This document shows, in pieces, positions 717 to 64,000 of a stretch of DNA of 64,000 bases (positions are counted from its first letter, which is position 1; the number at the start of each line of letters is the position of its first letter). A program made the translations under genes and the position numbers. A model generated the notes under the pieces. The model had not been told where the DNA came from, ran no database searches, and saw only the letters and a list, made by a program, of their open reading frames with translations. Source of the DNA: Urechis unicinctus (Eukaryota; Annelida; Polychaeta; Xenopneusta; Urechidae); the NCBI GenBank assembly GCA_034190875.2, contig CM067343.1:55619945-55683944 (forward strand). Reading direction: 5' to 3'.

Positions 717-1189
717 GCCGTGAGCTTTGCGCGATTATAACTTGATTAACTGCCACAAAGAAGATTCATGTAAAATAACATGTTTTGTGCCTCCTGTCAC
801 TGCAACTTGTGGTCTCCTTAATTCTTATGACGTCTAAAGCAATGTTTAAGTATTAAAATGGTGCTCACGGGGATGCCTAATGCTAACCAAAAAAGCCTCG
901 GCGCAACACTTCCACTAATGAGTCTGTGGTATGTGCATATAAATTGCAATCATGGAACCTGTTAGATGAAAACTATCACTTGCTATAAAAGGCAAGAAGT
1001 TATGAATGTATGTAAAGTAGTCTGGGCGCGTGGGGATATAAAGCAGTAAAGATCAACATACAATACCACATATGTTCTTGAGAGGGAGAGGACGACACCT
1101 TTAAACGAGCTGTTAAAGGTACCGTGTGTCAGCAAGGCATGGATAGCTCGTCGATCATTGTCGGTTAATGAACAATTACATTGCGCTAC

Positions 1190-2565
1190 TTGATACATGG
1201 GCTTTTGCAAATATTCACGCCCGCCGGGTCCAGCAACACTTTAAAAGGCAGCTCGATTTTATTTATAAGTAATCACACAAACGTAAATAAATGAAAGCAA
1301 AATTATCCAATTCTAAATCGATTTGACGATGCAAAGCACTAGAAATCCAAACTTTCCCATTTGATATACTTTGTCCGACTAAGAATATTAAATGGTCATC
1401 TAGTGTATGCTGTGGTGAAAGGAAAGAGAAGGTGGCAATGTTGTTGATTTGTAAGAAAACATGACTAATGTTGTACCTGTCTGGTGTAACAACAGAATAG
1501 AGGATGCTTTCGTGGATATAAGCTTAATTAACCTGGATGTTATATCGCATTTTCATGTACCGTATTAATCTGGCTATCCCATCAACGCCCCTTTCGAACT
1601 TTGCTCAAATACCAAACCGTCGTGTACAGCCTTAATCCGGCTCATTCGCCAATACATGGTGTTGATCGCCCCCGGGTCGAAACGGAAACTTGCTGTTCAA
1701 TGTTTCTACCCCTGAAGACTGCATGTCGGTTCCAAGGCATGGTACTGATACCATTACTGACCGAATATATGCACATGAAAAAATAACTTATGTATTGAGA
1801 ATGATTATAGCGATATGATGCACTAGGGGACGGAAGCAGCTAAGGTTATTTTCGCAATTAATATATACCGCATTTTGCTTGTCTAGCCTGACCCTAAGTA
1901 TAGTGTATACCGTAACATCTTAATGAGATAGATCATACACCAATGTACCCTAAATTACCTATTTAAAACCTAAAAGTATACAACAACTACTTATGGTCTT
2001 AGTTTAATTAGATCAGCGAATCATTGTCCAGCTCAACATTTGCGCATGAGCATGCACATACCACATGTGTCTTCGTAAGGTAAAACAAGTATTGTACACT
2101 TGAGTATATTCTAGCATCGATGGCCAAAAAAATATATATGGTAAAACCAAATTGATGTCCAACTTTACTTTACGAAACATTAGGCGGAAACGATATATTA
2201 AACACCATGCGTGCCAAAACCTTAATTCACTTAACCGTCGAATCATTTATGAGAAGCACTTTTGTTTTTATCTTGAGATAATGCAATTTCGTGTCAAATA
2301 GCGAGTATGAGGTATAGGTCCAGAGCCTGTGTTGCTTTCTATGATGTTCATCTACGGCAGTTGACGTTAGATTAATGTATAATCAGAATAATATCACAGT
2401 TACGGTTGCATCAAATGACATATTCAATATTATAAGTCATCCGCTATGGATATGTAAAAAGTAAAATGGCCCACAGAGGCTGTTGTGATGCATTTCAATT
2501 GCATTTTCTGTTTGGCGTAATTATTAGCGGGACACGATTGATGTAAGCTCACTCCTATTCTTGCT
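1190..2565. other. Copy-A-only segment, no feature seen
   Basis: Present in copy A between two aligned blocks and missing in copy B, where the flanks meet near 38,750. No TIR, poly(A) tail or coding signal was recognised. Whether it was inserted in A or deleted in B cannot be told from the window. Confidence 0.6.
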
Positions 2566-2949
2566 TATTAAAAGATGTATGTCAGCGGGGAATTGTAGAT
2601 GCATGTGACGAGCTGAATTTTAGTCGATCATTGAAGTGGTTAATATATAAGATATATATTTGGTAGGATATCTATGGTCAGATGACGTACTGACATTGAT
2701 GACAAATAACTCAAATAGTATTTGCAAACAGTGAGATTGTGCGCATTGTGTGTGATTCATTTACATCTTGCTATAAATGCATTATGAGAATAACTGAGAG
2801 CAATGATTAAACTTCCAATGATAAGAATATTATGAGAGTATGGGCGCCATGGCAAGGCACCATCATACTGGCTAATACTACTTCCTTAATTATATGCCTG
2901 GAATCACAAACTGTTTTGAATCTGAAAATGCAAATGCAATTGCTCAATG

Positions 2950-3640
2950 ACTTAGTAGCTCTTCGGCGAAAGACTTTCCATTAGCCTGTATAATTACATG
3001 GTTGATGATACGTGTCAGCAACTTTCAACCAATCGTTTGCTAAAATGCTTTAGATGGCTAGTAATGATACAGTATTGTTGTGTATGTTTACAATGATACG
3101 TATTACAGTGATTGATTATAAAGCATGCCATATTCAGCTACAATGTGACGTTATATTTCCAATAACTGTTTGGTTCCATTGATATATGTAGCGACAAGCA
3201 TTGGAAATTTGACTTAAATTAGTTGCTTCGTCGCAAAATTCACTCACTCGTATGATGGAAAACCTAGTATCTGGAGTTAGCTAGACGGGCTGTGCAAGTA
3301 CATTGCGGGTGTTCTCGGAACACGGTGTTTATTGTCATTTCACCATGTAATCATTCCCTTTAAGCAGCCTGGAATAAGCCTCAAACACAGCCAATAACCT
3401 ACGACCCGCCAGGTATTTAGCATATGATATTCCTTAAAAAGGCTAGTGATGCGAATTACAAGAGCAGCATTGTTCTTTTTCAATACTTATTTGGAAATGT
3501 CAGAGTGATTCTCGTAGCCAATTTGCTTTTCGATGTCGAATTCGTTGAGGCCATGCAATCTTAAGATCGAATATATACAATCATGCGATTAAATTGAACT
3601 GTTTTGTCTGAGGCTTACCATATGAAGCAAAACGCCATGT
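2950..3640. other. Copy-A-only segment, no feature seen
   Basis: About 0.7 kb that copy B lacks near 39,130-39,165. It is AT-rich, with no recognised coding or repeat structure. Confidence 0.5.
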
Positions 3641-4574
3641 AGCAAAACAATTTGTTTTATTTAATTTTTGTAAGGTCCAATAGTTGGACCACTGTCTACA
3701 CTAGCTGATAAGAAATACGTTGCGACTGATACAATATTATATAATACAGCACCATATGCAAATGACATATCAATGTGTTCACGACGACAATTATCTTAGT
3801 TCACAAGAGTAATCCAACTGAATCGGTAACAGGCACGTACTTTGATAATGTAGGCATAATTCGAACATTGAAGTATAGATAAAGCGGAGTAACTTCCCCT
3901 AGGCATGAAATCTAAATGCCTACAATATGACTTTGCTTGGTATATGACAAAGTGACAATGTTCATAATTCACCAGGTGTATTTACTGATAGTGGGTCGCT
4001 GTGTGATAGGTTGACATATATGTGCATATTAACGGAATTAATTGTGTTTATAGGGCCCATTATCTGTTACTAAGGATAACAATGAACCATGAACGATAAA
4101 ATGGCATTTAAAGTTAAGAGTTAACTAGTCAAGTCTCATTTTCTGATTTGATATCCTACTGGGGATTCAAAAAAGCATTTAGGTTGCAACATCATTGTAT
4201 TGGAAATGATAACACATGTTTGATTTTAAAACAAGGCGTGTTAAAACATAATCAACTATATCATAGTGCAGGCTCATCAAGTGTTCGATAATGTTTGGTG
4301 TGCACCGACTGTGAATCAATAAAATACCAGCCGATTAAGTTTTACTTGGGCAATGAAGTAGTAGTTAAGAAAACATACCGGTTACCGGTTAAACTGCAGC
4401 GGTGCCTTTGTTTATGTAAATGACGCAAAGTGTCCGATGTTCGTGCGTTCTTCTCGTATTAATGCGTGTCCACTTCAGATATCTATTCATAATTCATTTG
4501 CACACATTTAATGCGGAATTATTGGCTTCATTAATATGTAAATTTACCCGACATCGCCGACCAAAGTTGTGATT

Positions 4575-4790
4575 GGAGTATTTATGACAAGCATTGCGCT
4601 ACTACAAGGGTTGCTGGCTCCGCTGGATGTCGTTCACAAAGCCACAATTGTTCTAGTAGGTGATGAGTATAACACGGTACTTTGACAACAAAAGAGCGTT
4701 GTTTTCTTCTCTATTCTAAATTAAAGTACTAGTAAAAACATTAATTTTGCAACGTAACAAATCAGTGCGCGGGCAGCAAAATGGCTGTTG
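4575..4790 (+). repeat. Dispersed sub-repeat R, instance A1 (diverged)
   Basis: Starts with a ggagtatttatgacaagcat phrase shared with 43,600. Further shared phrases around 4,675-4,790 include ttttgcaac. It is the most diverged instance of a roughly 350-bp family that recurs about three times in each copy of the duplicon. Its orthologous position in copy B is about 41,530-41,740. Confidence 0.5.
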
Positions 4791-6825
4791 TTCAGTTTAA
4801 TGTCCGCCAAGACTTTATGTCATAGCCGCCGCGATCAAGATGTGTGCCTTAACATAGAAAACGGTTAGTTATAACTTACCCCGTTTCTCGGGCGAACTTT
4901 CATGAAATATACCATATTGTAACATCTTAAGGGCAATATCGAAAGAGTTTATGCTGTTCAGCATCAGTGTTTTGTGACATAATATAACAATTTGATGTAA
5001 GCACAACACACTTTTGATCACATCTCTGGATTGTGTTTGGTTTAGCAGGTCGTAAATATGTCGATTACATAACAAAAGCGCCCATACAATAACACATCAT
5101 TTATTGCATCTGCGTGACAATATCTAATTCGAGATCCTCTCAAATAGCCCCTAAGCAGTCAATCCAATGTTGTATATTCGCGAGTTTGCGCGAACAACAT
5201 TACGCATTGTGACAGCATCAAGTAACAATTTCGATGAAATGTGTGTGCCCACAGACTAACAACGTTTCCAATGCTGAAATAAGAAGATATTGGCACATGT
5301 GTTGACGTTTTCTCAGAAGAAATATACCCTCTGGAAGTCAACACATGAGTTGATGGATGACACCCATAAAATAATTATCTATTCAATCGATAAATGGTAA
5401 ATGTCATATAATAAGCCATTTTAAGCCCACATTATTGTCTCACAAGAGTCGATATCATCACATGCGATATCTTGCCGTGTTATATTGCCTTACTGATAAC
5501 ATTGAACCTTTGATCTGTTTTGACGAATAAGGAAACTGCTGTTGAAAAGACTTATTATGAATATTTTCTCGGAACTATTGAACGGAATCGTTTTGACTGA
5601 GATGCATAATATGGGTCATTAAGCAATGACAAATATATGGTTTTTATCCTCAATTGCATTGAAGCGGAGACCTTTTCATTAAACACATTATTCTTGATCT
5701 CGTATCTCTTTCCAAAAAGGTAGACTATAGCCGCACTTGCATATCTTTGGACCTAATGCAAATGTGATCTCAACGCATACATGAAAACGAAACCTTAATA
5801 TGTCCAATGACGAATCAACTTATCTGAATATGCTGCAATGTTTGGCATAGTACATATAAGCGTATTTCAAATTTTGGTCGCACTAGGGACTTTTATCTTT
5901 AATTACAATCTATTTGCGATGTTATGTAGCATTATCACAAACAGCACGTTCTTATAGTTTCGGGTGTTTTTGTTCTTGTAACCCTAAATACTGATTGAAT
6001 TTTGCTCAGCCCCTTAGGCATCACAAGACAAATTCATGACGTTATGACGGTAAAACAATTATTTACCTTACATTATTGATACTTAAAAAAGTAGTGCATC
6101 TTATGCCGTCAAAGTATATATATCTGTGTCTCACATCCTGCCAGGTAAACTGTACTGAAAGGATTTTAACTATTGTATTCTGGTATGGTTTCAACAACAT
6201 GCTGCGTTTAGAGACGGGTGAAATTTTCCTCATCGACGATACAACTCGAGCAGGACTATTGAATGATTACCGGGCTAACAGCGCCATTGCTTATGCTTAG
6301 ATATATTCTAAAGATTCGGTAATGATCCCTGCGAAAATGGAATGGAATTTAAATCTACCTCTTTTACTTGAAAATGTAACCCATGCTGACATGCAACTGT
6401 AATGAAATAGCGTGTTTAATTAGACAATATACTCGGACAAACAGGCTGTTAAGTTATTTTGATTGTAAATCTAAAGGTCGATATATATTTACTCAATACT
6501 TGAATTATGAATTGGATAGGGTGGTGTGCAATACATTAGATACTTATTGACCTGTACAAAATAACTACGGAAGCAGCTCCAGTTATTTTCAAGGACATTA
6601 CAAAATGACTTTTGCATCTTTAAACATTTGAGCTTATAACAGTCACTCCGTAGATAACGCACTAAGTTTGAATACTCTGCTATTCAATGCGTGTCAAAGC
6701 CGGATTTCAATTCAATGTTTTATTTAATTTGCCCGAAGTAATTATAGAATTATGGGTCACAAGGGATGCAGGACTATATTGATAGCGACAAATGAACCAG
6801 GCGTAGCTTATGAAGCCCTAGCCAC

Positions 6826-6930
6826 TATGTGTTTCCAAAGAAGGAGCCGCCACGATAAAAGGCTACAATATGGACGGTAACATATGTACTGGGAAGTGTT
6901 ATGGCGTCCCGTTCCCTAACGTATTGTCAT
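6826..6930 (+). repeat. Dispersed sub-repeat R, instance A2 (3' part only)
   Basis: Carries the right-hand phrases of the R family: gagccgccacgat, then gaagtgttatggcgtcccg. Copy B at 43,583-43,866 retains the left part, which is missing here, so this instance has probably lost about 260 bp. Confidence 0.55.
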
Positions 6931-7099
6931 AGAATATATTATATATCACCATCTCATGGGCTTGCATGATGTTCCGCACAAGTCGTTAAAAAACATCACT
7001 TTACATTGTAAGCACAATCAACATTGCATCATGTGATTAAGCACGTCGTACAATTTTGTATTACATGAGTAAAGCACCCCTAATATCACCAAACATCTA

Positions 7100-8350
7100 T
7101 TGCAGCTTTGGGTATGGCAAACATTTATGCGTGGCCCGTGCAAAGCTTCTCTGTTCATCAAAACATATATACCAAAATTCGAGGGTTTTTTCGGAACAAT
7201 ATTGCACTTTGCGACCGCGAAAAGTTATGTGTTTACTTGATTACAATGTTAATTATAAAATCTACAAAATTATCCCAAACCTCACGTTATTTGTACCCAT
7301 AACCATATCCGAAATTCAATACGTTCAAGAAGTACCACAGGTTGAGACGTCCCTTTGTAATATTCCTGTTGCAATATTGAAATTCACGATGTATGATGAG
7401 TCTTTCAGGTCCTATTTGAAAAATACATATTTGTCTGTATCTACTTGTCCCGAGCTACTCTATGACAAGCCTGGTGCGGAATCGCCAACAAAACGGTAGA
7501 TATCAACATAGCCGGTAAGTCGCCTGCAGTATCGGAATAGAAAGAGAAAGTGAGCAGCAATACCAAATTCTGCTAAAATAGAACATTGAGACATTAGCTC
7601 ACACAACCATCGAGTCTTCGTTTTGAGATTCATACAATCGCAATACAGATGGGTGGCGGGCAGGAAAGTTGATGGTCATGTCATGATAAATAATGACAAG
7701 GCAGATAAATCCATCAGCTACTGCTCAGCGCTGCACTATTGCAAATGACTCCCGCGATTAAAGTTGTCGAATTTTATCGTCATTGCAAAGAGACGTATTG
7801 TACAAAGTGTTAAATGAGACGCAATAAATAGAGCTTGATTGCTTCTGTTTGAATAAAACGCGGCTAGGCCCTACAAGCCAAGTGTTCGTTACTACGTAGC
7901 TAATCTTATTGCTCCCTCTTCAAATGATTAAGCAACGTACTGCACCGATGATGTCCGTCAATGATATCAGGAAAAAACTAATCCACTGACGACGGTTCGA
8001 TTTTCTGTTTCACTTCGTTTGAGTTAGTGAATGTGTTCCTTGCTAGGTAAAGAAATAATCAGCTGTTGAAATGTTATCTTGACCTTCGGATTCAATGGCT
8101 TTGCTGATATTTTATAAAGGGACGTAGGCTCATACCTAAAAAAGAGTTCATGTGTGGATTTCTACCAGTGAAAATATATCTGCCCTCTGATTAATTCTGC
8201 CTTTTGTTTATGGTAGCGTGGATGACGCCGATGCGATTATATTTCTTATTGCATTTGAAAACAAACCTCCATGTTTTGAGCAATCTTGGATTTATTATCT
8301 CCTTCCTCACTTTTGAAACGTCTTAAGGAGTGTATACATTCAAGTATTGT
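7100..8350. other. Copy-A-only segment, 1.25 kb
   Basis: Copy B goes directly from the block ending at 44,125 to the one starting at 44,132. A 147-codon open frame (7,056-7,499, plus) straddles the left junction, but it resembles no family I know, has no neighbouring coding signal and is cut off in copy B. I do not call it a gene. Nothing else was recognised. Confidence 0.5.
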
Positions 8351-9159
8351 AATGTTTGTTTCCTTGACGTTTAATATCGAAGAGTACTGACCTCTTCTCA
8401 TCAGTTGGCGCACGGATATTGCTATGTTTACAATTTTAAAATCTAGGTTTTTGCAAACAGGCATGCAACGCAAATATACATCCAACCAATCAATATTAAC
8501 TTCAAGTACAATGCATTTTACTGAAGCTTTTCGCAGGTGTACCATGCATGCTTTCGATAATTTTATTATGCAAGCGTTTGACAAATCCATGCATTGATGT
8601 CTCGGAGACCAGTGTCTTTTGTATTCATATTGAGATTTTTGAGAGGCAAACATCTATTTACTCTTTGCGTATATCAATTAATTCCTTGTGGTTGTTCTCA
8701 ATTATCATATGCCTTGAAAGCCATTTATCTATGCGCTGTTAGGGTAGGCAATCGTTCAGGAGATTCATGTAACAAACCATACAAAAAGAGATTTGTATAC
8801 GTTCATGTGCCACATGCCACATTCCATGCACACCTCATTAAACCCCACCAATTTAGGCGCCCACGGTACTATTATTCAAATACAACTGCCAAAGGTATAT
8901 TGATTGCTGGTAAGTATACATCGAACAAAGCACCTTGCGATAGTTTTATAGTTAGAATGCATCACTGGTAGGGCAAGATCCTGATATTGGTCCGATATAT
9001 AAAAAGGCAATGGCTCGCGTGCGGCATACGCAACACATTTTTGGTTTCATCTTCATGATTACTTAACCTTAATCTGACGTTCTATAGGCAACACTTTATG
9101 ACAAAGATAGAGTTTATATGTCAAAAGTGTCAAACTTTATCTAGTTAGCTGTTAACTTG

Positions 9160-9440
9160 GGGACTAGGAATTTGTATGTATCTAATAGACGGTTACGAAA
9201 TGTAGATAAATAAGATATTTTTTTTTTTGCCGAAGGTTGGTCAACATATAACGGGAATGTTCGGGCATCTGCAACTTGCAGAATGACGGCATTTAAGGAT
9301 GTAAGAACTGTATTGCCGCGAATGAGCAAAATCGTGACCAGCTTGTGTTTATGTGCCCATTGACACCCCTGCAACTGTAAGATATTGAAGTTGGTGTATC
9401 CGGCGATTCAAGCTGATTGAGAGATAAGCGGATCAGACAG
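9160..9440. other. Copy-A-only segment, about 0.28 kb
   Basis: Absent from copy B near 47,372-47,410. Contains a short T tract near 9,221. No other structure was seen. Confidence 0.45.
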
Positions 9441-11149
9441 AAGACTGCTATATATAACTAACAGTTCTTAACGCAGCAACATTTTGTAATTCAATCACAG
9501 TATCTCTTGTTAAATCTTTTCACCAATGTTATTATTCTAGGACTCTGCAATGCTATGATGTCTATAGATAAGCTTTTCAAACAAATCATTGCCGAATTAA
9601 TGGCTGAACGCTTCTAATGTTTCGTAACTGGTGATGATATTAACTTCATTACCATGTAATAATGGTTAAGTCAAAGTTTTACGGCAATTTATTGTTAAAA
9701 TAGTAAACGTGTTGCGCACTAACCGTTTTATCTTGTGATAAGTGCATGTAAGACTCTTTAAAATGTTAACGGTATGCTTAATGCTAAACGATCTAAACAT
9801 TATAGCTTACGGGCTTTTACACGAGCTGACATACATTATGTCGAAATCGACTCTTGTTATATCGATGTTAATGGCAGTATGCTCGTTGTATTTTTAAATC
9901 TAGAACCATAAATATATTAACGAAGGGGACTACAGTTATGTAATGTCAATAGGCAGTGCTTGTATAATGCAGCACTTTTGGCTTTATGTTGTAACAAGGT
10001 TGCGCATTTCAGTGATCCATAGAGAAATGCAAAAAGCATACCGTTCCAAAGTCAATCTGCATATCGCCACTCTAATGTCGCTTGTGAAGGTTTTCAAAAT
10101 CTACACATGTCTGAATTGTCTCAAACGTTGGACATTGTAAATATATGCAACTGTTTATATGTTTTGTATGTTAGTCGCACCATACACTTTTACGCACTAT
10201 TTAACGGAGGTTTATATCACATTGCAGAAAATCGTCATCATTCCGCCTGCCTTTCGCAATCCCGAAAACAACAAGACAAGCATTCGGACGGGCTGATATT
10301 TACAAAGTGTTCAAAAGTGAGATACAAGCTTTGGGTTGCAACGCTAATCTATTGTACGAATTCGTATTTATCCCTTTCTAATTCCGAGCAAAATACTGTC
10401 TGAGTGGTTTCTGGTTTTGGAACTCAGTCACATAATGTGCGGTTATTATTTTTTCTCGGACTCCATCTGTTAATGCCAATCACACACAGTAATTAAAGAG
10501 ATGGCTGCACCTCACATGTTTTTCATTTGATTATAACATAGATGATTGGGCTATGTATATGACGTTTTCGCGAGTACAACGCTGTGGAGTTATCGAACAA
10601 CAAGAGGAAGTACAAAGCAGCACAAGAGGCGTTCAATTATGATGGTACTGTCCTTATAAACGGAGCATCACATAACTTCGTATTTGAAGTACAAATGGTA
10701 GCATCAAAGCGATCACGATCTAAAAAACCTGCATACTAATATTCAACAGCTCACAGGGTGACATCACAGCTGCAGAGAAAAGCTTTTCCTGCTCACGTGG
10801 ATCTAGGTCGCATTTTCACAAAGAAAACTCGAGTACATTCCGATTGTAAACCTCGCTGACAAATCTGCATTGTTAAACACTTTCTCATAGAATGTGATCA
10901 GCCCCTCACTAAGAACTGAGTAGGTCGTAAGCTGCATTCACATTATAGCATCGCCTCATCCATTTCCTTTGCATAATCACGCAATACGCTTTTCTAACCA
11001 GTCTAAGAATATACACAGCGATGTATAAATCAAGGTAACGATGGATTACATAATTCAAAACATCTGAACAATACATCAATCAAGCGGAACGATGCTGCGC
11101 AATTATTTACACAATGTAGTTTTAATTTTATTACCGCGGTTTGGAAAAG

Positions 11150-11800
11150 ATATTTGCGCTGCGATTGGCCCTCATAATGAAGATATCGTCTAATATGATG
11201 ATATTATTCGCTTGCGTCACTGGTTTATAATCCGTCTTGAGGTATATCCATATTAAATGCTTTGTTCGAAATGTCATCCTGGTCTGATGGGAACTTTCCA
11301 ATATGGCTTTGTCAAATACTGCCCAAGAATATCGTTTGGTGCTGCATAGAGAATAAATTCTCCTTGAAAACACCAGCGTCAGGATAAAATAAAACATGCA
11401 AGCCTCTCGGGTGTCCAAGTTATGTGACTCTTTCTGGTTAGGTTTGTTCTGGTTCACACATAACGAAATAAATTATCTTATCTTTATCTTATCTTAGCTT
11501 AGCTCAACTCCTCCCTCAAATCAATAGCTCTTACGTGGCTCTTTAAGAAATGTTTCGTTGACTTTAAGATCGAAACAACACCGGTGTGGTGAGGGCTGCA
11601 TGGTAATCAATTGTTATGACGATCCGTTCGTTCGTTGGATCAAAGTATACGCATGCGTTGATAGTGTAGCCTATGCATATATACTGTGAACAGCAAGACG
11701 TAAGACACATGGATTGTGCCTACTTACATTACACATTTGGAATTGTTCTCCACGTTAGGGATATGTCAGTTGTCGATGTATGGGGATCGAGTTAATGATT
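11150..11800. other. Copy-A-only segment with short TTATC repeat
   Basis: Absent from copy B near 49,585. It includes a short imperfect (TTATC)n run at 11,473-11,505. No coding sequence recognised. Confidence 0.5.
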
Positions 11801-12599
11801 TCAAAAGTAAAACTGTTCTGCAATTGTCTCATCCATCGACCAAAGATTACATAAACCCTCAGCATTTGTTTGGTCATGACATTCTTGACGTCGAAGTAGC
11901 ATCGCTCATTTGCTGGACAACAAATGAAGATGCATATAACTAATGTTATTTGTAGGTTAGGACAACAAAGTTGTTGAACATGTCTGCTCTTACAGTAAAA
12001 TACTCTTAAATATACTGTACACTTCATAAGTTATTCAAGCATTTACCATGTAATCAAAAATTGTAGATTCAAAATAAGTGTTGATGAATCTAAATGCATC
12101 ACACGCAACGGCAAATGTATTTCGGGATTATTGACAAATCACCAATCTTGCACCTGTTGTACAATACGCCTTGCTCCTGGGCACTTAAGGAGAATACCGA
12201 CTATCAAACTAAAAATCCGATATTGCTTTAGTTAACATAAGCCTAAGTCGGCTAACGGGAATTTATCAATGTCCCAAGACAGCAAGCGGCATGGATTTGT
12301 GACCTATCCTTACTCGGCGACGCTTACTGTTCCTTCCAAATGTGAAACAATATCTAATTGTTCTCTTGGAAGATGGAAAAATATACTCACTTATTTCTTT
12401 ATATCGGGGAAAGACTGTCAAACATGGTTGCAATTTTCATTTCATGTTCCGACAGACAATCAATGCATAGTGATATAAGCGATATGAATAATTCAAATAT
12501 ATTTGATGAATTTACTGAGATCAGGTGTTCAAATATGCCGCCGTAGTCTAATGGATGTCAGGATTGTTGCATCGGCGCACAATATTCGCCGTGCGAATA

Positions 12600-12945
12600 T
12601 AATGTGTTACTGCAGTGCCACAAGGCTTATGAGTCTAGCCTTATAGCGACATTGAAGATCACACGTTAGGCGCCATTTGCCCTAGGTAGTGTAGCATCCT
12701 GTGTAAATTTGCAAACGGTACGGTATCAGTAATCCTACGTATTTTTCGACATCACGTTGATTTAGGATAGTAGCAAAAGCAACTGATTTGCAACGTATTT
12801 GCGAAGGTTGGAGACTGCCACAATATCTTATTATAGCCGCAGAGTCTTCTCAAATCATTAGCCGCCACGATCATCAACTATAATTTGAGCTGTAACTTCT
12901 AAGCTGGAAAGTGTTATGGCGTTCCGTTTACTTACATACGTTCAT
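12600..12945 (+). repeat. Dispersed sub-repeat R, instance A3 (full)
   Basis: The best-preserved copy-A instance. Ordered phrases include cagtgccacaaggc, gcaaacggtacggta, gacatcacgttgatt, attatagccgcagagtc, agccgccacgatcat and ggaaagtgttatggcg. It aligns with 55,879-56,225 as its duplicon partner, and more distantly with 43,600-43,965 and 4,575-4,790. Confidence 0.65.
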
Positions 12946-13059
12946 GCTACATAACATATTACATCATCCGAAAAGCAATACTGATTGTTTCGAATGATAT
13001 TCAGCGACATAGTCCCTAGACAGAGACGACAACAGGCTACAGGGTTGCCTTGACAACCA

Positions 13060-46310: not shown

Positions 46311-46316
46311 AATAAA
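46311..46316 (+). terminator. Polyadenylation signal after the YqaJ relic
   Basis: AATAAA about 100 bp downstream of the stop codon at 46,209. Confidence 0.4.
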
Positions 46317-49378: not shown

Positions 49379-49776
49379 AGTATGGCATCGCCTCATCCAT
49401 TTCCTTTGCTTAATCAATACGCCTGTCTAAACAGTCTAAGAACATACACAGCGATGTATAAATCAAGGTAAGGATGGATTACTTAATTTATAACATAGGA
49501 ACAATACATCAATCAAGCGGATAGATGCTGCGCAATTATTTACAAAATGTAGTTTTTTATTTTGTTACTTCGGTTTTGAAAAGATAGAAAGTGAAACTGT
49601 TCTGCAACTGTCTCATCCATCGACCACAGATAACCAAAACGTAAATCCCTCAGCATTTGTTTGGTCATGACATTTCTGACGTCAAAGTAGCATCACGCAT
49701 TTGAAGGACAACAAATGTAGATTCCGATAATAAATGTTATTTGTAGGTTAGGACAACAAAGTTGTTGAACATATAA

Positions 49777-51075: not shown

Positions 51076-51977
51076 TGCTCTTACAGTAAAATAATCTTTG
51101 ATATACTGTACACTTCATAACTTGTTGAAACATTTACCATGTTATCAAAAATTGTCGACTGAAAATTCGTGCTGATGAACCTCAATGCATCAAACGTCAT
51201 TTAGATGCAACGGCAAATGCAATTCGGGATTATTGACAAATCACCAATGTTGCACATGTTGGACAATGCGCCTTACTCTTCGGCACTAAAGGAGAATACC
51301 GACTTTCAAACTAAAACTCCGATATTGTTTTAAGTTAACATAAGACTAAGTCGGCCAACGGGAATTTATCAATGTCCCTAGACAGCAAGCAGCGTGGATT
51401 TGTGACCTATCCTTACTCGGCGACGCTTACTGTTCCTTCCAAATGTGAAACAATATCTTATTGTTCTCTTGGAAGATGGTAAGATATAGTCACTTATTTC
51501 TTTGTTAAGGGAACGACTGTCGCACATGGTTCCTATTTTCTTTCACGCTCAGACAGACGTACAATGCATAGATATATGCGATATGACTAATTCAAATATA
51601 TTTGATGAATTTACCTTGCAGAGACTGGTCGAACATAATGCTGATAAATGAATCATAAGATTGACGATATGCTTTGTTTTAGGACATACCAACGATGCAA
51701 TGAGCCAGCCGACCAGTATGTTGCTTATCAAATAACTGATAAATAGATAAGTTTTGTATGCGTTTGAATTATTTCTTTGTAAGGAGCTTTCAGTTGAGCG
51801 CAAGAATAAGGTTACCTTTTATAGATACTTCAGCATTCCATCAACTCCACAGCAAGTACTTTCATGCAAACAATATTTAAATGTCGCACAATGTTCTTTG
51901 CAAATGTTCTTTGCTTCAAAACTGGCAAACAGAATATCAACAACCCTTATCGTGAAGTAGCTACTGCCCTGTCAGTG

Positions 51978-53400
<1,423 letters not shown>

Positions 53401-55878
53401 GGAAATTCCCCTCGTTCTGTCTCGCGACATCGGGCTTGAATTTGGATTCTGACGTGAACTATTAAGTTATTTGTAGTAAATGTGTGACAAAATATTATAT
53501 GTTGTGATTTGTTTAAAAGTTGATACAAATTTGAAGGGTAGTGGCGAGGTAACTGTGTGTTGTGCTATATTAGTTGTAGAAAGGTAAGTTTACTACATAG
53601 TGAAACTACGTATTTGATATGTATTCAGTACGTATATCTGTTTGCTAGTACATCACTTTGGTTGTGTTGAAATGTGATATTTTCAGGTTGACATCTAATA
53701 TATCGTTTATAAATGAATGTCAGTATTACAATTATCTTTTAAGCGCGATGGGGGACAACTCACGCCATTGGAAGCTAGGTTCATGTTAAATAACTATGCA
53801 ATGAATGGAAAGAGATTGTACCATACACGGTCCGAATTGCCACTTACGTCGCCTAGATAGAAGTGGAAACGCTTTCAGGAAGAGCTTTGATTCATCATGT
53901 TTTGCACAATCCTTGGTGATATATTATATTTAGAACTAGTCTACGTCCCAGACTCCAGGGGTTCCGCTATGCTTCGTGCATAAGAGTCTACGACAAGACA
54001 AGGTCTAAAACTGGGGCGTCTGTTGAGGCGTCACGTTGTGACCCGGATTGACATTAGTTGCGAGCGTCTGGCTCATGAAACTGGCTTGTGATACGCACAC
54101 TCGGTTTAATGTGATCTCATGTACATTGTTGCGGTCTGAGAATAAACTTCCGTTCTGGTGAAAAGAGGTGTATAACGGAGCGTACCAAAACAAATACTGG
54201 CGCCGAATCTTCGGAAAATGTGACATTGACCAACGAGAGACAATGACTCAAAAACACCCGAGAGTGACCGAGAGACACGGCCTCTGATTGGAGCATCCCA
54301 AATCTGGGATACCGCATCCTAGCCTAGACCGTTGGCGACACTATTGAATTTCATTAACATATAAACAGGGCCCGCAGCCAAGGGGCTAGGGGACCTTGAC
54401 TATTAAGAACTGAAATATTCGAGAAAATCTCTGTAGCAATTTTGATCAATGACGCTAAAACAAAGTCAAAGTCACAACCGGCCTCATTTGCGAGTGTTTG
54501 TGAGTGTTTGCAATGTATTCGATCACCAAACTCGGTATTATTACTGGCAATAAGAACACGAAAGTGTTATCAGTTTTCATTTAAAAGCGTTCAGTTATCA
54601 TAACATTGTGCGCATTGTTAGATCAATACCTCGTCAAATACCAGAGACTCTTGCATTTCGTTGGTATGTATGTGTATATGTGCCTGTTTATTTGAGATGC
54701 AAAATCTACTCTGGGTAACCTTTCTAAAAAGTGACCGAACGCATTAGGCATTTGTTGCACTTCCTACAGCAGTTGATGGATTCGTCTCATTTGACTGTGT
54801 GCAACACATCTTGTTTTCCGGTACATAAGTGGTAATGGGTGACGTATAGTTTATTTTACGATTCGTCTTAAAACGCTACCACATTTAGTTCCGCATTTGT
54901 CCGATAAAAAATAAAACAATATATCTTGCATAAACGATGAACTATTTGTCAAGCGGTAATATATCACAAATATGGAATCATCAATCTTCAACCGAGAGCT
55001 TGCCCTAGTCCGGAGTAGTTGGAAATCTGTTTTACTGCAATACATCTAGCTATAATGTAAACAACCACGTTAGGGTCTACTATTGAACATTATGGTTGTG
55101 GTTACCGTATGCTGGTTCATGGCGACGTGTAACATTGACGATGTGACATCCATGAAGATAATACATGGTGCCAGATGTTGTTCGTTTTAAATAACCGCTG
55201 CACTCAAAAGCGTGCAGAGTGATATGCACTGTGATAACTCTATATGTTTAAAGATCCGATTTCATGCTAATATCACTTAGTATGTATTGGACATTCGCCT
55301 CGCAAAATAATTGGATAAATACCAATCACGTAGTGAATGCCTGCGATAATTGCTTGTTACCAAGACATGTAAACCTCGCATCGACAATCGTGTTTGCATG
55401 AGTTATTGACAGGTGACTTAATTGAATAATTAATTGCAGCTTTATTGTGTACCGTTCCAAAACCTAATAAACATACATTTTTTGTAAAGTAAGCTAAACA
55501 CATTTGGAAATATTGTTATGGATAGCTCGTTCGTAGGTTGGTCGCATAGAAATAAGATGTTCTTAAGCGGACATTGAACCATTATAAAATCAGGCATTGT
55601 ATTTAAAAAGTATGGTGTTCTGGTCTATTAAAGTTTGAGTTAAACAAACATGGAACGACGGATTACATCGGTTGGTTGGCCACCGATACGTATGGCCCTG
55701 TTCAAACCTATTTGAGTAACAACAAAAAGTATTGATTACGATCATATTGATTAACTACTTGACACGTGTAGTTAATGATTGATGTCGGCGATTATTGATA
55801 GCGTCTGATTCAGTTAATTTAGCTGCTCGAACACACAACATAACCGAACGACAAAGCATCGTGGTAATCATGTGCAAG

Positions 55879-56225
55879 ACTAATGTGTTTTTGTGTTAGC
55901 GGAGTGCCACAAGGTTTTAGAGTCTAACCTTATAGCGCCATTGACGATCACACCCAAGGCAACATTCGCCTCAGTTTGTGCATTATGCTGTAACAATTTG
56001 CAAACGGTACGGTACGACATCACGTTGATTTATGATTGGAGCAAAAACATCTGATTTGCAACATCAACCCTTGCAGTGTTTACGTCATTGCACAGCTTTG
56101 AGACACAGTTTCTTGATATAGCCGCAGAGTCCTCTCGAATCATTAGCCGTCACGATCATCCACTATAATTTGAGCTGTAACATCTAAGCTGGAAAGTGTT
56201 ATGGCGTCCCGTTTATTGACATAAG
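55879..56225 (+). repeat. Dispersed sub-repeat R, instance B3 (full)
   Basis: Duplicon partner of 12,600-12,945: gagtgccacaagg, gcaaacggtacggta, gacatcacgttgattta, atagccgcagagtc and ggaaagtgttatggcgtccc, in that order. Confidence 0.65.
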
Positions 56226-56360
56226 TTCATGCTACATATCGTATAAATCACCGATGAGCGTTACGGATGGTTTCGGATGATATTCAATAACATAGTCCCT
56301 ATACAGAGGCGACAACAAACATTACTTTATGTCGTTATTACTAGTTCCATAGAGTCGCAA

Positions 56361-56455
56361 CACTTAGGCATATAGTGCAATAGTGGACCATATTATTTAT
56401 ATACATATATATATATATACATAAATATTTATATATATATATATCTATATATATA

Positions 56456-56495
<40 letters not shown>

Positions 56496-56783
56496 GTAAC
56501 ACTTAGGCATATAGTGCAATAGTTGAAAATATATATATACATATATATATATATAGATATATATATAATATATATATATATATAGGCATATAGTGCAATA
56601 GTTTGAACATATATATAAATATATATAATGTATATACATATATATATATATGTTAATACTTATATATATAAATATATATAAATATATAATATATATAATG
56701 AATATATATATATAAATATGTATCCCTATAAATATATTGATATATATATATATCATATATATATATAAATGTATTTATATATG

Positions 56784-56816
<33 letters not shown>

Positions 56817-56850
56817 GCATATATATTTATATTTATATATATACACATGT
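56361..56850. repeat. AT microsatellite cluster with a repeated unique phrase
   Basis: The phrase aggcatatagtgcaatagt occurs at about 56,366, 56,505 and 56,584, each followed by an AT-rich tract, which shows unequal expansion of a unique word plus microsatellite. Repetitive frames rich in I and Y on both strands are artefacts. Confidence 0.85.
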
Positions 56851-57219
56851 ATGTGTGTGTATATGATTGTTTTAGTGATGTTTGTTGCACGGGTAACCGG
56901 TCTATTTGGTCTGCTTTATAAGATGCAATCCTGATAGGCACGTTGTACAGACAACGAGCCAAAGAGCACAGTTATCTCTCATATTTATCCACGTGTGCCT
57001 GAGTTAGGGTGTGTTATAATCCCTTGCAGCATGTCTGAGGGGTTACACAATAGTCGGAAAAGGAGGCAATTCAGCAGTGCATTAAATCAGGCACAAAAGT
57101 AGGCATTGTTGAATAATCAGTTTTGCATGTGCGCTGAAGTAAAATCACTTCACTAACATATAGATGCTATTTTCAGATGGGAAATACAACCAGGGTTTAT
57201 TGGACGACCTATGGAAGAT

Positions 57220-58345
57220 TAATGTATCAGGCATTGACCGAAATGTCGCTACATGACCGGTTACGTCCCAAGTAGCGGACACCCGATGATCTTGCAATTA
57301 TTTTTTTTATCAGTAATCGACAGGCAGCCTGAACTTGAGAATATTAGCTGAATTTGGTTGTCGAGGCGAACCTAAAGACACCTAGGTAGCAGAATGACTT
57401 GCAATGCACCCTGTAAACGAGAATTTAAAATAGACATTTGCTATCGAACGGTTGTCAATATTTATTTAATTAAACTGCTTTTTGATAGAAACGTAATGCA
57501 AATGTAGGAGGTACAGTCTGCAAATAGGATTGTTCATTGTTATACAAACCGGCCTTTTGTATTATGCAGTCAAACGAGTGAAAGAATATACAAATATGTA
57601 TTGTGCATTTTGACCGATTTTCTATTACTTCTAGAATTGCGAAATTCTGATGACAACCAGTAGGAGTGTGAATAGCTACTTACAGCACAGTTACTTTACG
57701 TACATGCATATAATTTAGAATGCTCTCATAGAAGCTCATTTAACCATACATACTTATTGCTATGAGTTTCATGTTATGAGAGATTAATACAATAGCTAAC
57801 GTTGAATGGGATCTCGACTTCAACCTTTTCCCAGCCCGATACATAAACATATCAGTTGACGGAAGTGCAAATCCAAATTTCGGTAATGATGTTGTTTCAT
57901 ATTTCCATATATGATGACAGATTAGTTCTGCTGTTTATCTGATTACGGCTGTGCACTTCAGTTGACTCCTCTTATGCACCGTTTTCTAACGATTATGCGA
58001 AAATTCAATTTGGTACTCAATAATATTGAATATATGTGATCAGGTGATATACTCCGGGAAAGCTGACCAACAACCTCTACTGATTAAAGTGGCGCTCAAT
58101 CATCATCCAATCACCCGATGGCGGCTTTATGTACACAGCCGACGCATAAACATCAACCCTCTGGATGATATTACTCCTGTATAACGATCGTCTTTACATA
58201 GTTTTTAGCACAGGGTTATAACCATGTTCGCTCACCATGCGATACTGAATACAGAGAGTAGTGACTTCTTCAACGGCACCTCCATTACATTGAATATGAT
58301 TAATTACTAGTTTACAAGCCATCGGCATTAAGCGAGCTAAAGATT
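57220..58345. other. Copy-B-only segment, no feature seen
   Basis: About 1.1 kb between blocks that are adjacent in copy A (16,640-16,660). No coding sequence or TIR recognised. Confidence 0.45.
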
Positions 58346-58521
58346 TGTAATTTTTACATAGTTGCTATTAATGACGTCGGCTTATCTGTAATTTATCCTG
58401 AGAAAGTTAGGGATTTTTGAACGAATAAAGAAGTATCTCTTAATCACTTGAGATATTCACAAAATGATAGATCGTTATCTTAATTGTGACATGATTACCA
58501 TGCTTGGTATAAACAAAGCCA

Positions 58522-58930
58522 TTCGCACAGCATTGCAAATAATTGTTAAACTTTTGTTTTCTCGCATGAACAGTGAATTCGAATGGTTTTTAAGCACGGT
58601 GAGATAGCTCCTAAACACGGTGAGATGCACATCGACTACCGTTCAACGGCTTGGATGCTTTGTCTATAAGGAACGGACAGGTGAATCGTTAATTATCCAA
58701 ATGCTTCAGTTCCGCTCTTGATAATATAGTACCGTGCCTTAAAATACACCTCTCCAAACCGAATGTCGATATTCTAATCAACCCTATACGATAATGAGTG
58801 GCCTTTTACTCTGAGAGTATTTAAAAATAACTTATTAGACAGAGTCATGGTTTCGTTCTCGATAATAAAGAAGCCGGCTATAAAGAACACGTTTCCTAAC
58901 CAAAGCAAATGTAGACATTGGTAATTTCGA
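58522..58930. other. Copy-B-only segment, no feature seen
   Basis: Stands where copy A has 16,835-17,900, and the two are unrelated by eye. A short repeated phrase cacggtgagat occurs near 58,597 and 58,616. Confidence 0.4.
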
Positions 58931-59539
58931 CATATGCTGATACAAATTCTACGAGCGACGTTAAACATCTTATGTCTAGACACAATGTAACTAATCCGAC
59001 TGATACGCCAATTGCTCATCAAATTGAACACTCCTCCATTCAAATGCGTGTTCAACTACTGATTTCTAATTGTTTGGCATTTTTATTACTCTTTAGTATG
59101 GGCAATATTTTCAATACCTTTGCCGTATGTTCAATTCCGACGAATAACAGCTCGTTATTTCTGTGGTCGGAATATGTATCGCGATGTAAAGTTTACAATT
59201 AATTGAATATTGAGCAAATAGGCTTATTTTTTCCTTGCATTTTCATTTCCTACATCGGGGAAGAATACAGCCATATTACGCTGTGTAAGGTGTAAGTGTA
59301 TGCGCCACCATTTGACACCAGGAAATGTTTGTAATCAAAAGCAATGCTCTTGGCAAATCTTTCAAGACTTGAACGGTTTTGTTAGATGACGATGATGTTC
59401 AACACTGCTTGCAAATATATACACGCGACCATGTTCTTCTAGCAGCGCAGTGCTTTGGCGTCAACAGCCACTGGCTGCATTATCTCAATCTCTCGGTGTT
59501 GTTGAATCATCCGATTACCAGACATGTAGCATCAAACGA

Positions 59540-60060
59540 TAGAGCGTAATTGATTTTGTTTTAACATTCGAGTTGCAATTGACACCACGCTATTTGCAGT
59601 TGTGTATGCCCATAACTCCTGTACAGTTATCTTTGTCGAATATAAGAATATAACAATCCGGGGCTGCCTGATTGATCATTAGATATGAAAATACTCATAT
59701 CGTTTGGAGGTAGAGCGTAATTGATTTCGCGTTTAACGCGAGTTGCAATGGCATTCAGGGCTAGTTACATATAAATCACGCTCAGTATGCCCATAACTCG
59801 TGTACAGTGGTATCCTTGTCGAATATAAGATGATTCCTTAACACCGGGTAACCACTAAGTTGATTTAGATATGACAAGGTACTCAAATGCACATTTGGAG
59901 GTAAGCGCTTCATATATTCGCGTAATACGAAATGCGTGTTGCTCGGAAATTTGATTGTAGTATTATATGCATTCAGTTTGTACGGACTCTACAGAATCTA
60001 GCTTGTACGCTATGCATTCGTCGTCACGGTGTTATCCTTATTGATTCGTCAGAGGTGATA
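59540..60060 (+). repeat. Tandem duplication, 171-190 bp units, two and a partial copy
   Basis: Units start at 59,540 and 59,711 (tagagcgtaattgatttt or close variant). Both contain gagttgcaat, tatgcccataact, gtacagt and gtcgaatataag, and end in tttggagg. A third, diverged partial unit begins at 59,901. Copy A has only one counterpart of the unit start, near 18,490, so the amplification occurred in copy B. Confidence 0.75.
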
Positions 60061-60859
60061 TATGCTTCATAATCACTGCGGATACAATCTCCAACTCCTT
60101 GATTGTAATACCATATGCCTCATGTTTGCAATGGACTCTTGACGGTTGTACGGAGCATTTTTGCTGTTGTTGTCAATAAAGGATTGGTTATTTCCACTAA
60201 TGTTGGCTCATTAACTGCTGGATACATTTAGATCACAACAGCATAGCCAGGTTAGTGTGTTTGTCACAAACAATGAGCTTGCACGGTTGACACGGCATTA
60301 TTTGGTAATCTGTTATTGTCAAGCCATGCTCATTATGACGAAGAGCGTCAATGTTCATAGTCATTTGCATATTTAAAATGCAGTTAGATCTATAGGTGTC
60401 GGCGTTCTTCGATGTTCGTACGAACTGAAATGGAATCTTTACTAAGGAAAATGGAAAAAAGAGATAGAACAAATTCCTAGAACTCGATGAGTACATCTAT
60501 AGTTGTATTATGAATGATATATGGCACGTCTATAGTTTAAATCGCGTCACTATACTGATAGTAAATAATATGCTATAGGTGTCGCTTTTCTTCGCATTAC
60601 ATATTGTGTATGCAGAAGGAAATAAAATTATTGCAGATGTGCGTACATAACAGTGTTGTTTAATTGAATAGTAGGCAACATATCCAGGGAGAAGGGTTAC
60701 ATGAGTAAAGCGCTATAATAGCAATATATCATAGCGACGATATATTATTCACTTATGTGTCCGTTTGGCAACCGCAATTTCGTGTTCATAAGCAACAATC
60801 AACTATAATATCACCACAAATCGCGTTAGTGCGACTGCAAACTCCAAATATCTTATGTT

Positions 60860-62045
60860 ATGGTACTATATCTGTAGCTAAAGCATATAATACCCGTTTG
60901 ATTGTCATCGGCGGAAAAAATGCCATCGTATATCGCAGCCTGAATAAGAGTCTTTAAGGGCTCCAACACATGGATGGTTAATTTGATTTAGAACACATAC
61001 ACTAGAGTGTCGTTTCATAAAAATCAAGCCAATGAGCCATGCCTTATGATTCTCAAACTAGCAGATAATATTTCATTGCATATAAATACGCGTTAGCATG
61101 GCGTGGTTTTGCCTCTGAGTATTGCCTTTGCCAAGTATAGGAAATTTCATGTCAATGTTGTGTGCAATACATATATATTTCTCAGTTCTACTTCAAATTT
61201 AATATGCACGATTTCTATCATTAAGAGATTTGACAATCGTGATTGCGTACCTGGTAGAATATGCTGCCATAACAGTCAAACTTGTCACCAGTATCAGTAC
61301 TGCGAGTCAGACAGATAGTTAGTTCCGTGGATGTAAACCTGTCCTGTAGGAGATATTAAACTCGACCGTCGCAATTGATGATTGATAAGTGAAGTCATAT
61401 TTACAATGTCAAACTAGAACTGCATATTATAGTTCAATGACTTCAGGATTACCCTCTTGTGTGCCAAGAGTATTATCTTGTGAGTGTAGATGGGTGAATG
61501 ATATTTAGGAATATTACTTATTTCTAAAAAAAATATGTTCGTTTCTTAATATTTAGTTCTGCATACAACAAATGAGTCTAAGGCCGTGTACAAAAACCGT
61601 TCAAAACGGTCTAATGCGAGGTCTCATTGCTGATATGGATCGCCCAACCTAATCTGCAAGACCCTTCCTCATTGCTTGGTAACTCAGTTATAGACGGCTA
61701 ATATAGCTTTATACGAAGAATAACGGTTGGAAACGTGGGTTCAAACTCATTTCCTGAACAATGCTTGTACAGCAACACGACACGACATCCAGTGGATGAC
61801 GGCTAATTACGGCAAACGCACTGAGTGAAAGTTGCAGCGGTGAGTTAAAGAATTCTGCCCTGTTTAACTGTCAAATAGAAATCCCGCCTAAGGCGCCAAA
61901 GCAATGCATCAAGTGACATCGAGTGCCGCAAAACGTGAACATTTGTGACCTGTTCCAAACAAACTCATCTGTGTATGCCTCAAAGGATTTTCATTTTTGT
62001 GCAATGCCCTCTCACTGTCATTGCACCACCGAACAACCAGCGAGC
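60860..62045. other. Copy-B-only segment, no feature seen
   Basis: About 1.2 kb absent at about 21,065 of copy A. No recognised gene, TIR or RNA gene. Confidence 0.45.
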
Positions 62046-63399
62046 AATATTGCATGATAAGCGCCCTTTCCATGGTTAGCAGAAGAAATTCCGTCTTGAA
62101 ATTATGAAGCCGGCTAGCCGATAACTTCTAGCCAACCGCAGTGGATATGGCGGATGCCATGAGCAAAATGCAAGCAGATTTATGCACTGATTAGGTTACA
62201 GGCGTTCTGATTGAATTCGACAAGAGATGATTGCTCCAATGAGTGGCTTAATGCCAGTATTGTAAGCTCTTAAAGTTTATCAGACCACATTATTCACGGC
62301 AAATGATACCTGACGTAACTAATAAAGACACCACACCCAACTGCTTGGTCCCAATACAATGTAACATGATGCTGCTTGTCAGTGCAGTGAGCAAGATGAT
62401 AGGCTTTATCTTCTCATTGTAGCATAAAGTGTTGTGTTCTAATGCTATCCAAGGACGGCGTTGATGAATAGTCATTTTAGCACGGCGTTAATGAATATAA
62501 ATTATAAATGATTGTAGAAGCCCTGTGTAAGTTCATTTTGTTTGCCACGTGCCTGTCATCAATTACACTGGGCATGCCGGATCATAATGTGAAAACCATA
62601 GACTGTATGCATGGATAGTGCATAGTGCCAGAGTGGGCAGAAATATTCACGCTTGCAGCTGTTATCGATTAAATGGGCCAACATTAGCTCGATCCGATCA
62701 GACAGACGAGGCGCAATGTTAATTTCCACAAGGCGTGAGCACTACAGACCATATTGTATCTTTTGCCATACTTAAAGGACCACGTGGGATTGTCAGAAAC
62801 AGTACGCGTCAACAGTGTTGAATGTGCTTATTTATTTGATGCACACCATGCATTGTGACTCTTCTGCCTTCTAATTGAGACACTAGCAATAACGCGCCTC
62901 GGCGATACAGCTGTGTCCTTGGCATCTACGATACGCGTCAATTGTTTCTTTTAAATGCACCTCATTCATCAGATGTATATCAATTAGGGCAGAAATATAG
63001 TGCTCTATAATGTAGTTCCTGTATTCATCACATTGAAAGACATTTGCACGTTTCTCGTATAACGAAAATTTTCTAATATCCTTTTATAGGTCAGGTTCAA
63101 TAAACAGCTTATATAAAGCTTGGAAAGTAATCTGGGGGAAACCATAATAATGGGATCGAATAATGGGATTCCGTCAGCCCATACACAATCTGTTAGGCCT
63201 ATCTGGTTTCTGAACGATAGCTACATTAAAGGCTTCCGGCGAGGATTACTTTCCAGTTATTCTCACATCTATATCATATTCGTTATCGCTTGCCTCAATA
63301 TCTCTCACACGGTGGGAGCCACCAAATTTGGTTTTGATACGGTTTATGTGCGTACAATACGCGATACTGTACGTTGGCTCTATGTAATAAGCCAATTTA

Positions 63400-64000
63400 C
63401 GTATTGGTGATCGGGTCGAAGCCCTATTAATGATGCTCCCTTAAATGATCGTCAATAACAGCATCCCAACTTTGACTTTGTTCGTTAAAACCAGCTAGGT
63501 GGCATCAATCTACTGAATGGTTTACCTCTACCGTAGATGCAGTTTCGATATTAGACATTAGCACTTCGCAAACAACAGAAACATCGCCTTCAGTCTCACT
63601 TCTTATATGTTCAGAAAACTGATGCCATATGCCTTTGCCTTGCAATTGAAATTGACACTATAATGTGTTTCGGTAACACTTTTTCAAGCTTGTAGGACAG
63701 TTCATAACATTTGCAGCTTGTTTGTTCAGTTTGAGTGATTCTCAACACATTAAAGTGCTTGACCCCAGACTGAGATCCTTGGAGTTTTTCTCTTGCCAAT
63801 TGAAGGGTCTTACCCTGTCGCACTCATAAATAGACCACTGATAGGTAGCAACACTATCTTTCAGGTTCATCAGTGTCAATGTACTCAGTGGAGCCAAATA
63901 TCTACGCGCCAAACTGCTCCAATAGAAACACATCTAACGCCTAACAATAGCGGTTCGTCTCTCATGCAATTGGATATGAGTATAGTTGCAGAATAAATCA
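63400..64000. other. Right flank beyond copy B, no feature seen
   Basis: Does not align with sequence after 22,410. Short open frames only. Confidence 0.4.

What the first reader, a model, noticed from the sequence alone, without database searches (positions are those of the whole stretch)
717..63400. 22-25 kb direct duplication without conserved genes
Nearly two thirds of the window consists of two collinear, diverged copies (717-22,410 and 38,262-63,400), yet no shared block contains a reading frame conserved in both. Frames that look long in one copy are broken or absent in the other, and substitutions fall without codon pattern (for example 9,943-10,403 against 47,902-48,363). A large non-coding unit kept in order suggests a low-copy macro-repeat, a long non-coding locus, or one step of a longer array.
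Basis: seen in the sequence. Interest (0 to 1): 0.75.

Follow-up and report, generated by a model that had tools for sequence, protein, structure and literature searches.

The report
Gene-free 38-kb repeat array, clam chromosome
The window holds a little more than one and a half steps of a long head-to-tail row of roughly 38-kilobase repeats on one clam chromosome, with no host gene found in it, which looks like DNA multiplied by unequal exchange and then left to decay.

Summary
The duplication is real but is only part of the structure. Two copies align collinearly in about 20 blocks (10,308 ungapped positions, 84.3% identity). The window lies on contig C2 of a held 1.19-Gb genome, by its transposon a clam near Mya. 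In 340 kb fetched around it, 77.6% of readable bases have a direct copy more than 3 kb away; direct matches sum to 389 kb, inverted to 3.5 kb. Much of the 'spacer' belongs to the unit too: 84% of the window has a copy. Mapped to one unit, the region falls into ten successive phase runs; array sequence was found from 55.420 to 55.788 Mb. Three blocks searched genome-wide match only here. No coding signal: dN/dS is 0.826 in open frames, 0.826 and 0.804 in wrong frames. No host gene, Rfam or tRNA match was found; substitutions show no strand bias. Different segments have different nearest units, the mark of unequal exchange. Best reading: a neutral tandem array of very large gene-free units.

The parts
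743..38305 (+). Array unit 1 (taken here as the reference unit, 37.6 kb; its start is an arbitrary phase zero)
   Evidence: Collinear with window 38306 onwards and with eight other phase runs in C2:55.44-55.78 Mb
38306..64000 (+). Array unit 2, cut by the window end (continues to about C2:55.695 Mb)
30929..38305 (+).
24100..25220 (+). Another part of the 'spacer' repeated in other units
9446..10918 (+). Best conserved long block between the two window copies; 5 genome matches to 9943-10403, all in this array
4436..6190 (+). Internal sub-repeat alpha (second copy 41364-43003)
   Evidence: About 56-61% alike to beta and gamma, same strand
6684..7227 (+). Internal sub-repeat beta (second copy about 43437-44309)
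12603..13034 (+). Internal sub-repeat gamma (second copy 55892-56387)
27601..30607 (+). Unit-1-specific hAT-type transposon remnant (DUF4371 frame 27601-29019; hAT dimerisation frame 30062-30607)
   Evidence: Pfam E 1.2e-22 and 1.6e-11; no array copy listed for window bins 26-30 kb
44666..47137 (+). Insertion absent from unit 1 and present in the unit at 55.728 Mb: frame weakly like viral alkaline exonuclease (+, E 9.9e-5) and sub-threshold THAP-like frame (-, E 0.024)
34035..34290 (+). Dispersed short repeat (SINE-like by number; class not determined) inside the unit
   Evidence: Search with 33950-35850: all 31 off-array matches fall on query 86-341; 40 of 1144 first-look candidates scored
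52159..53365 (.). Long imperfect (AT)n arrays; others at 36503-36634 and 56390-56843

Best explanation
The finding is one stretch of a head-to-tail array of about 38-kb units (20-58 kb as they stand) at one place on chromosome-scale contig C2 of a Mya-like clam. Shown: one direction, ten phase runs in 340 kb and array sequence from 55.420 to 55.788 Mb, no second locus for three blocks searched genome-wide, no coding signal in the window's units, unit-specific insertions and losses, and segments of one unit whose nearest relatives lie in different units. Inferred: a gene-free segment was first doubled in tandem, then misaligned exchange between sister chromatids or homologues repeatedly added and removed units, while each unit decayed at a near-neutral rate and collected transposons. 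An older round of the same process left the sub-repeats alpha, beta and gamma inside each unit. No function is needed to explain it.
For: Direct 388.6 kb against inverted 3.5 kb of matches in 340 kb; 77.6% of readable bases repeated. Ten phase runs; array sequence at 55.420 and 55.786-55.788 Mb. Genome-wide: 9943-10403 has 5 of 5 matches in the array, 11985-12566 has 6 of 6, 4436-7098 has 25 of 25. Coding scan: global dN/dS 0.826 in open frames (n=830) against 0.826 (n=786) and 0.804 (n=787) in shifted frames. Mosaic kinship: window about 19-57 kb is mostly nearest to 55.706-55.741 Mb, window about 57-63.6 kb mostly nearest to 55.589-55.597 Mb, and marker trees disagree. Of six complementary substitution classes (6,089 polarised substitutions), none is strand-biased at p<0.05.
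Against: Identity between the two window copies varies more than shuffled mismatches allow (200-bp variance 0.00261 against at most 0.00101 in 500 shuffles), which could mean constraint. Profiles of disjoint unit pairs give a mixed answer (the script stopped with an error after 11 tests, 2 of them with too few windows to judge): of 9 usable tests, 7 were unremarkable (9-49% of circular shifts as high), one was positive (c1/c2 against b/d, 80-bp windows, r 0.39, none of few shifts as high) and one negative; and sites differing in both pairs were 1.45-3.57 times as many as expected, so rates do vary between sites. The column-shuffle control of the coding scan gave 25 frames with p<1e-3 against 5-11 in six shuffles; the wrong-frame control (7 against 8 and 13) removes this. 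Four of the 30 best-scoring frames have no stop in the other copies (53628-53738, 5524-5619, 39907-40044, 9185-9292; 32-46 codons each). 27.5 kb of the region reads N and was not seen. The genome search skips very common words and scores only the best candidates, so single-locus is not proven for every part of the unit.
Confidence: 0.85

Rival explanations
1. A non-coding array kept for a role: a long non-coding RNA, a regulatory or chromatin domain, or centromere-like DNA, with copy number under selection.
For: Old array (many unit pairs 72-89% alike) kept in one orientation; conserved stretches such as 10102-10341 at 95%; identity heterogeneity above chance; one of 9 usable tests of shared conservation positive and site rates uneven.
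Against: No Rfam match at gathering scores; 13 of 14 folds of conserved stretches have z above -2, the best is -2.5; no strand bias of substitutions; conservation mostly not repeated in independent unit pairs.
Confidence: 0.08
2. A decayed tandem gene family: the founder unit held a gene whose copies all became pseudogenes or lost their exons.
For: Bivalve gene families do grow by tandem duplication (C1q-domain genes, PMC6835236, title and start of abstract seen); units of this size could hold one gene each.
Against: 100 open frames (94 in shared blocks of copy 1, 6 of 98 in copy 2): one Pfam match at E up to 0.01, a CCCH-finger model at 0.0052; a 510-aa query of fragments from the shared blocks found no protein at E up to 1 among candidates of 0.55-1.75 times its length; frames show no residual codon pattern.
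Confidence: 0.05
3. A large mobile element inserted repeatedly side by side.
For: Units carry transposon remnants.
Against: Blocks 4436-7098, 11985-12566 and 9943-10403 match only this locus; nearly all matches run one way.
Confidence: 0.01
4. Assembly artefact: allelic copies placed in tandem.
For: Units c2 (55.658 Mb) and e (55.723 Mb) are about 91-97% alike over long runs.
Against: Most unit pairs differ by 10-28% with different insertions; ten phase runs exceed two haplotypes.
Confidence: 0.01

Closest known systems
Macrosatellites (human D4Z4, DXZ4, NBL2)
   Same: Head-to-tail large units at one locus or few loci.
   Different: Their units are described as up to a few kilobases (PMC8122249, passages seen); here about 38 kb, fewer copies, far less homogeneous (72-97% in the markers), and no gene found in the unit (that D4Z4 carries DUX4 is recalled).
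Tandem segmental duplications and tandem gene clusters of bivalves (e.g. C1q-domain genes, PMC6835236, listing only)
   Same: Units multiplied in tandem, diverging and rearranging.
   Different: Those are known by their genes; no host gene was found here.
Non-coding tandem arrays made by unequal crossing-over (Smith's model, as described in PMC8122249, passages)
   Same: Unconstrained DNA becoming repetitive by unequal exchange; mosaic kinship of units.
   Different: The unit is very large and the array old and only partly homogenised.
Higher-order repeats of centromeric satellites (recalled)
   Same: Larger blocks can be copied together.
   Different: No short monomer; only three sub-repeats in part of the unit; position relative to the centromere unknown.

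Membership tests
Tandem segmental duplication array | Several same-direction copies in line on one chromosome | tested here: met
   Ten phase runs, direct 388.6 kb against inverted 3.5 kb
Tandem segmental duplication array | High identity (usual threshold 90% over 1 kb, recalled) | tested here: inconclusive
   Met by some pairs (c2 and e, about 91-97%), not by most (72-89%)
Macrosatellite | Unit of up to a few kilobases | tested here: not met
   Unit about 38 kb, 20-58 kb as found; definition from passages of PMC8122249
Macrosatellite | Copy number varies between individuals | not testable with these tools
   One genome held
Transposable element | Dispersed copies elsewhere in the genome | tested here: not met
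   all listed matches in the array. Block 21000-22430: 15 matches, 9 in the array, one inverted at C2:55.393 Mb, five short ones elsewhere. Block 33950-35850: 31 of 55 matches elsewhere, all to one 256-base piece
Tandem gene family | A reading frame conserved between units | tested here: not met
Structured non-coding RNA locus | Match to a known family or a conserved fold | tested here: not met
   No Rfam match at gathering scores in the window and 28 loci; one of 14 folds below z -2
Transcribed long non-coding RNA | Transcript across the unit | not testable with these tools
   No RNA data; indirect strand-asymmetry test negative
Ribosomal DNA repeat (also tens of kb, recalled) | rRNA genes in the unit | tested here: not met
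   No Rfam match at gathering scores

The most novel reading that the evidence does not exclude
The array is a retained non-coding macro-repeat: its ten or so large units persist because the repeat itself (as a chromatin or centromere-like domain, or as a source of long non-coding RNA) is useful, making it a 'giant macrosatellite' with a unit more than ten times as long as those named in the review passages read here.
Probability: 0.1. Interest if true: 0.75.

Novelty: new member of a known kind. Interest (0 to 1): 0.4.

Why it matters
Arrays of this unit size are usually noticed through their genes. A gene-free one with units of many ages in one place gives a clean record of how unequal exchange builds, mixes and erodes tandem DNA without selection on coding sequence, and could serve as a neutral yardstick for bivalve gene clusters. 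Of the paper searches made here, those listed nothing, and those (12 of 30 shown) listed nothing that by title and start of abstract describes such an array in a mollusc.

Tried and rejected
Coding exon in the shared blocks: frame tests on two copies and on all copies, column-shuffle control (25 frames with p<1e-3 observed, 5-11 in six shuffles) and wrong-frame control (which removes the excess); rejected. The ungapped beta-gamma core and the apparent EGF-like frame 34063-34272 (Pfam E 0.076; the cysteines are not all kept in the three aligned copies; it lies in the dispersed repeat) were followed and rejected. Structured RNA: folds of seven stretches on both strands and Rfam at a lax threshold (10 hits, all below gathering score, 9 of them in AT repeats). 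Transposon: terminal repeats of the insertions (only weak short candidates). Conservation shared by independent unit pairs (the script stopped with an error after 11 tests; mixed result, told above). Papers: searches; passages seen of PMC10663159, PMC8122249, PMC13130569; no whole paper was read. Labels such as SINE, Polinton, D4Z4/DUX4 and the 90% threshold for segmental duplications are recalled.
Full report
Observation. A self-alignment of the window shows about 20 same-strand, collinear blocks between 743-22,424 and 38,306-63,403. Realigned globally they hold 10,308 ungapped positions at 84.3% identity, block identities 71-90%, transition/transversion 0.80, indels mostly not multiples of three. 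Of the 19 gaps between blocks, 14 are one-sided (277-4,228 bases), four two-sided and one small. Some one-sided gaps are losses rather than insertions: 43,583-43,858 of copy 2 aligns with the gamma sub-repeat.

Organism. A 472-aa hAT-type frame at 27,601-29,019 (Pfam DUF4371, E 1.2e-22) has bivalve relatives; the best named hit, P0002, is from Mya arenaria, 80% identity over 92% of the query. P0002 searched against the window's own genome (71 of 582 candidates scored) matches best, at 93%, the window's own copy, so an identical copy was not found. The genome is probably a Mya or close relative and is not shown to be the M. arenaria reference. G000 has 1,190,315,542 bases in 926 contigs, and the window is C2:55,619,945-55,683,944 on a 73.7-Mb contig. 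A passage of PMC10663159 gives 1.22 Gb and 17 scaffolds for M. arenaria.

Extent. A 461-base stretch (9,943-10,403) has 5 matches in the genome, all on C2 at 55.526-55.733 Mb, all in the same direction. I fetched C2:55.440-55.780 Mb; six stretches in it read N, 27.5 kb in all. Of the readable bases, 77.6% have a direct copy more than 3 kb away; direct matches sum to 388.6 kb and inverted to 3.5 kb. Mapping bases to the phase of unit 743-38,305 (which is itself run 6 by construction) gives ten runs, starting at about 55.440, 55.452, 55.476, 55.515, 55.559, 55.620, 55.658, 55.696, 55.723 and 55.765 Mb. Within a run the phase rises with a few small back-steps from local duplications; a new run is a drop of more than 8 kb. 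The first and last are cut by the fetched region; the second and third begin only at phase about 13 kb, and the eighth at about 6.5 kb. Three 2-kb samples outside gave array sequence at 55.420 Mb (several units, up to 84%) and at 55.786-55.788 Mb (71-82% to 55.460-55.461 Mb and 73% to 55.486 Mb, at a consistent phase); the one at 55.800 Mb matched only 55.601-55.605 Mb, the stretch with virus-like frames, partly inverted. Array sequence thus lies between 55.420 and 55.788 Mb, 368 kb, with 55.422-55.440 and 55.780-55.786 Mb not seen; its ends are not fixed.

Single locus. Block 11,985-12,566: 6 of 6 matches in the array. Block 4,436-7,098: 25 of 25. Block 21,000-22,430: 15 matches, 9 in the array, one inverted piece at C2:55.393 Mb (72%), five short ones elsewhere, three at C2:41.3-41.5 Mb and one each on C15 and C8. 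Block 33,950-35,850: 55 matches, 24 in the array at nine positions from 55.4396 to 55.751 Mb; the other 31 all fall on query 86-341, a short dispersed repeat; only 40 of 1,144 first-look candidates were scored. The tool skips very common words and scores only the best candidates, so these are lower bounds. On this evidence the unit is not a transposon.

Inside the unit. Apart from AT-rich stretches, profile searches with 193 tiles find one triple of older direct sub-repeats (alpha, beta, gamma; about 56-65% alike), one inverted pair (about 20.3-21.0 kb, and 60.7-61.3 kb, against 24.3-25.6 kb) and a few marginal matches.

Coding and RNA. For two copies, 60 frames open in both for 30 codons or more have median dN/dS 0.88, best p 0.0136 uncorrected. 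With all copies, 821 frames have median 0.83; of the 30 best-scoring, 26 hold stops in other copies and four short ones do not. A column-shuffle control left a mild excess (25 frames below 1e-3 against 5-11). The sharper control, reading the same DNA in the wrong frames, gives the same global ratio (0.826 in frame; 0.826 and 0.804 shifted) and no excess (7 frames against 8 and 13), so there is no sign of codon-level constraint. Pfam scans: of 100 frames (94 of copy 1 with more than half in shared blocks, 6 of 98 such frames of copy 2) one weak match, E 0.0052; of 138 further window frames the hAT and alkaline-exonuclease-like frames and five weak matches (DUF6973 E 0.00097, Cep3 0.0041, DUF659 0.0053, Fer2_4 0.0061, DUF5613 0.0084); of 106 frames chosen from the 140 longest of 433 outside the window, YqaJ (2), Viral_alk_exo, Endonuclease_7 and Capsid_N. 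No host gene was seen, though small exons outside the window could have been missed. No Rfam match at gathering scores and no tRNA in the window or loci L006-L033. Fourteen folds of seven conserved stretches: one at z -2.5, the rest above -2.

Evolution. Marker alignments give identities between units from 72% to 97%, and trees that disagree between markers. Window about 19-57 kb is mostly closest to 55.706-55.741 Mb (matches 80-93%, marker B12 97%; tied with other units in places); window about 57-63.6 kb is mostly closest to 55.589-55.597 Mb (76-90% with gaps; markers B16 and B20 90% and 93%). This mosaic is what unequal exchange between units leaves. Substitutions polarised by agreement of the other units, 6,089 in all, show no significant difference between complementary classes (smallest p 0.086), so there is no sign of strand-biased germ-line transcription; whether such a bias would be visible in clams is not known. 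Identity along the two window copies is more uneven than chance. Profiles of disjoint unit pairs mostly do not agree, one pairing excepted, while sites that differ in both pairs are 1.45-3.57 times as many as expected. I read this as mixed exchange ages and uneven mutation rather than constraint, without being able to exclude weak constraint.

Conclusion. What remains open is whether the array has any role; nothing here asks for one.

Noticed in passing
L022 (C2:55,600,001-55,610,000): Several long open frames side by side that look virus-like by eye (polymerase-, endonuclease- and capsid-like); the scan of 106 frames that included them listed Endonuclease_7, Capsid_N and YqaJ families but not which frame matched. 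Possibly an endogenous DNA virus or a large virus-like transposon inserted in one unit. Described only.
   Followed up: partly
window 44666-47137: Insertion in unit 2, shared with the unit at 55.728 Mb but absent from unit 1, with weak alkaline-exonuclease-like and THAP-like frames and ends that are roughly inverted repeats (14 bases, 86%).
   Followed up: partly
window 34035-34290: Short repeat dispersed over the genome (31 scored off-array matches on many contigs), SINE-like by number; its class was not determined.
   Followed up: partly
C2:55,393,431-55,394,216 (minus strand): An inverted, 72% alike piece of block 21000-22430 left of the fetched array, perhaps marking an inversion at the array's edge.
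   Followed up: no
C2:41.31-41.45 Mb: Three short matches (46-52 bases, 87%) to one spot of block 21000-22430, perhaps a shared small element.
   Followed up: no
window 36503-36634, 52159-53365, 56390-56843: Long (AT)n arrays, one perfect over 132 bases and others strongly degraded.
   Followed up: no
window 24947-25169: Three copies of a 71-base tandem repeat, 94% matches.
   Followed up: no
window 12252-12400 (minus strand): Conserved stretch that folds better than shuffles (z -2.5, 3 of 200 shuffles as good); the best of 14 tried, so possibly chance.
   Followed up: no
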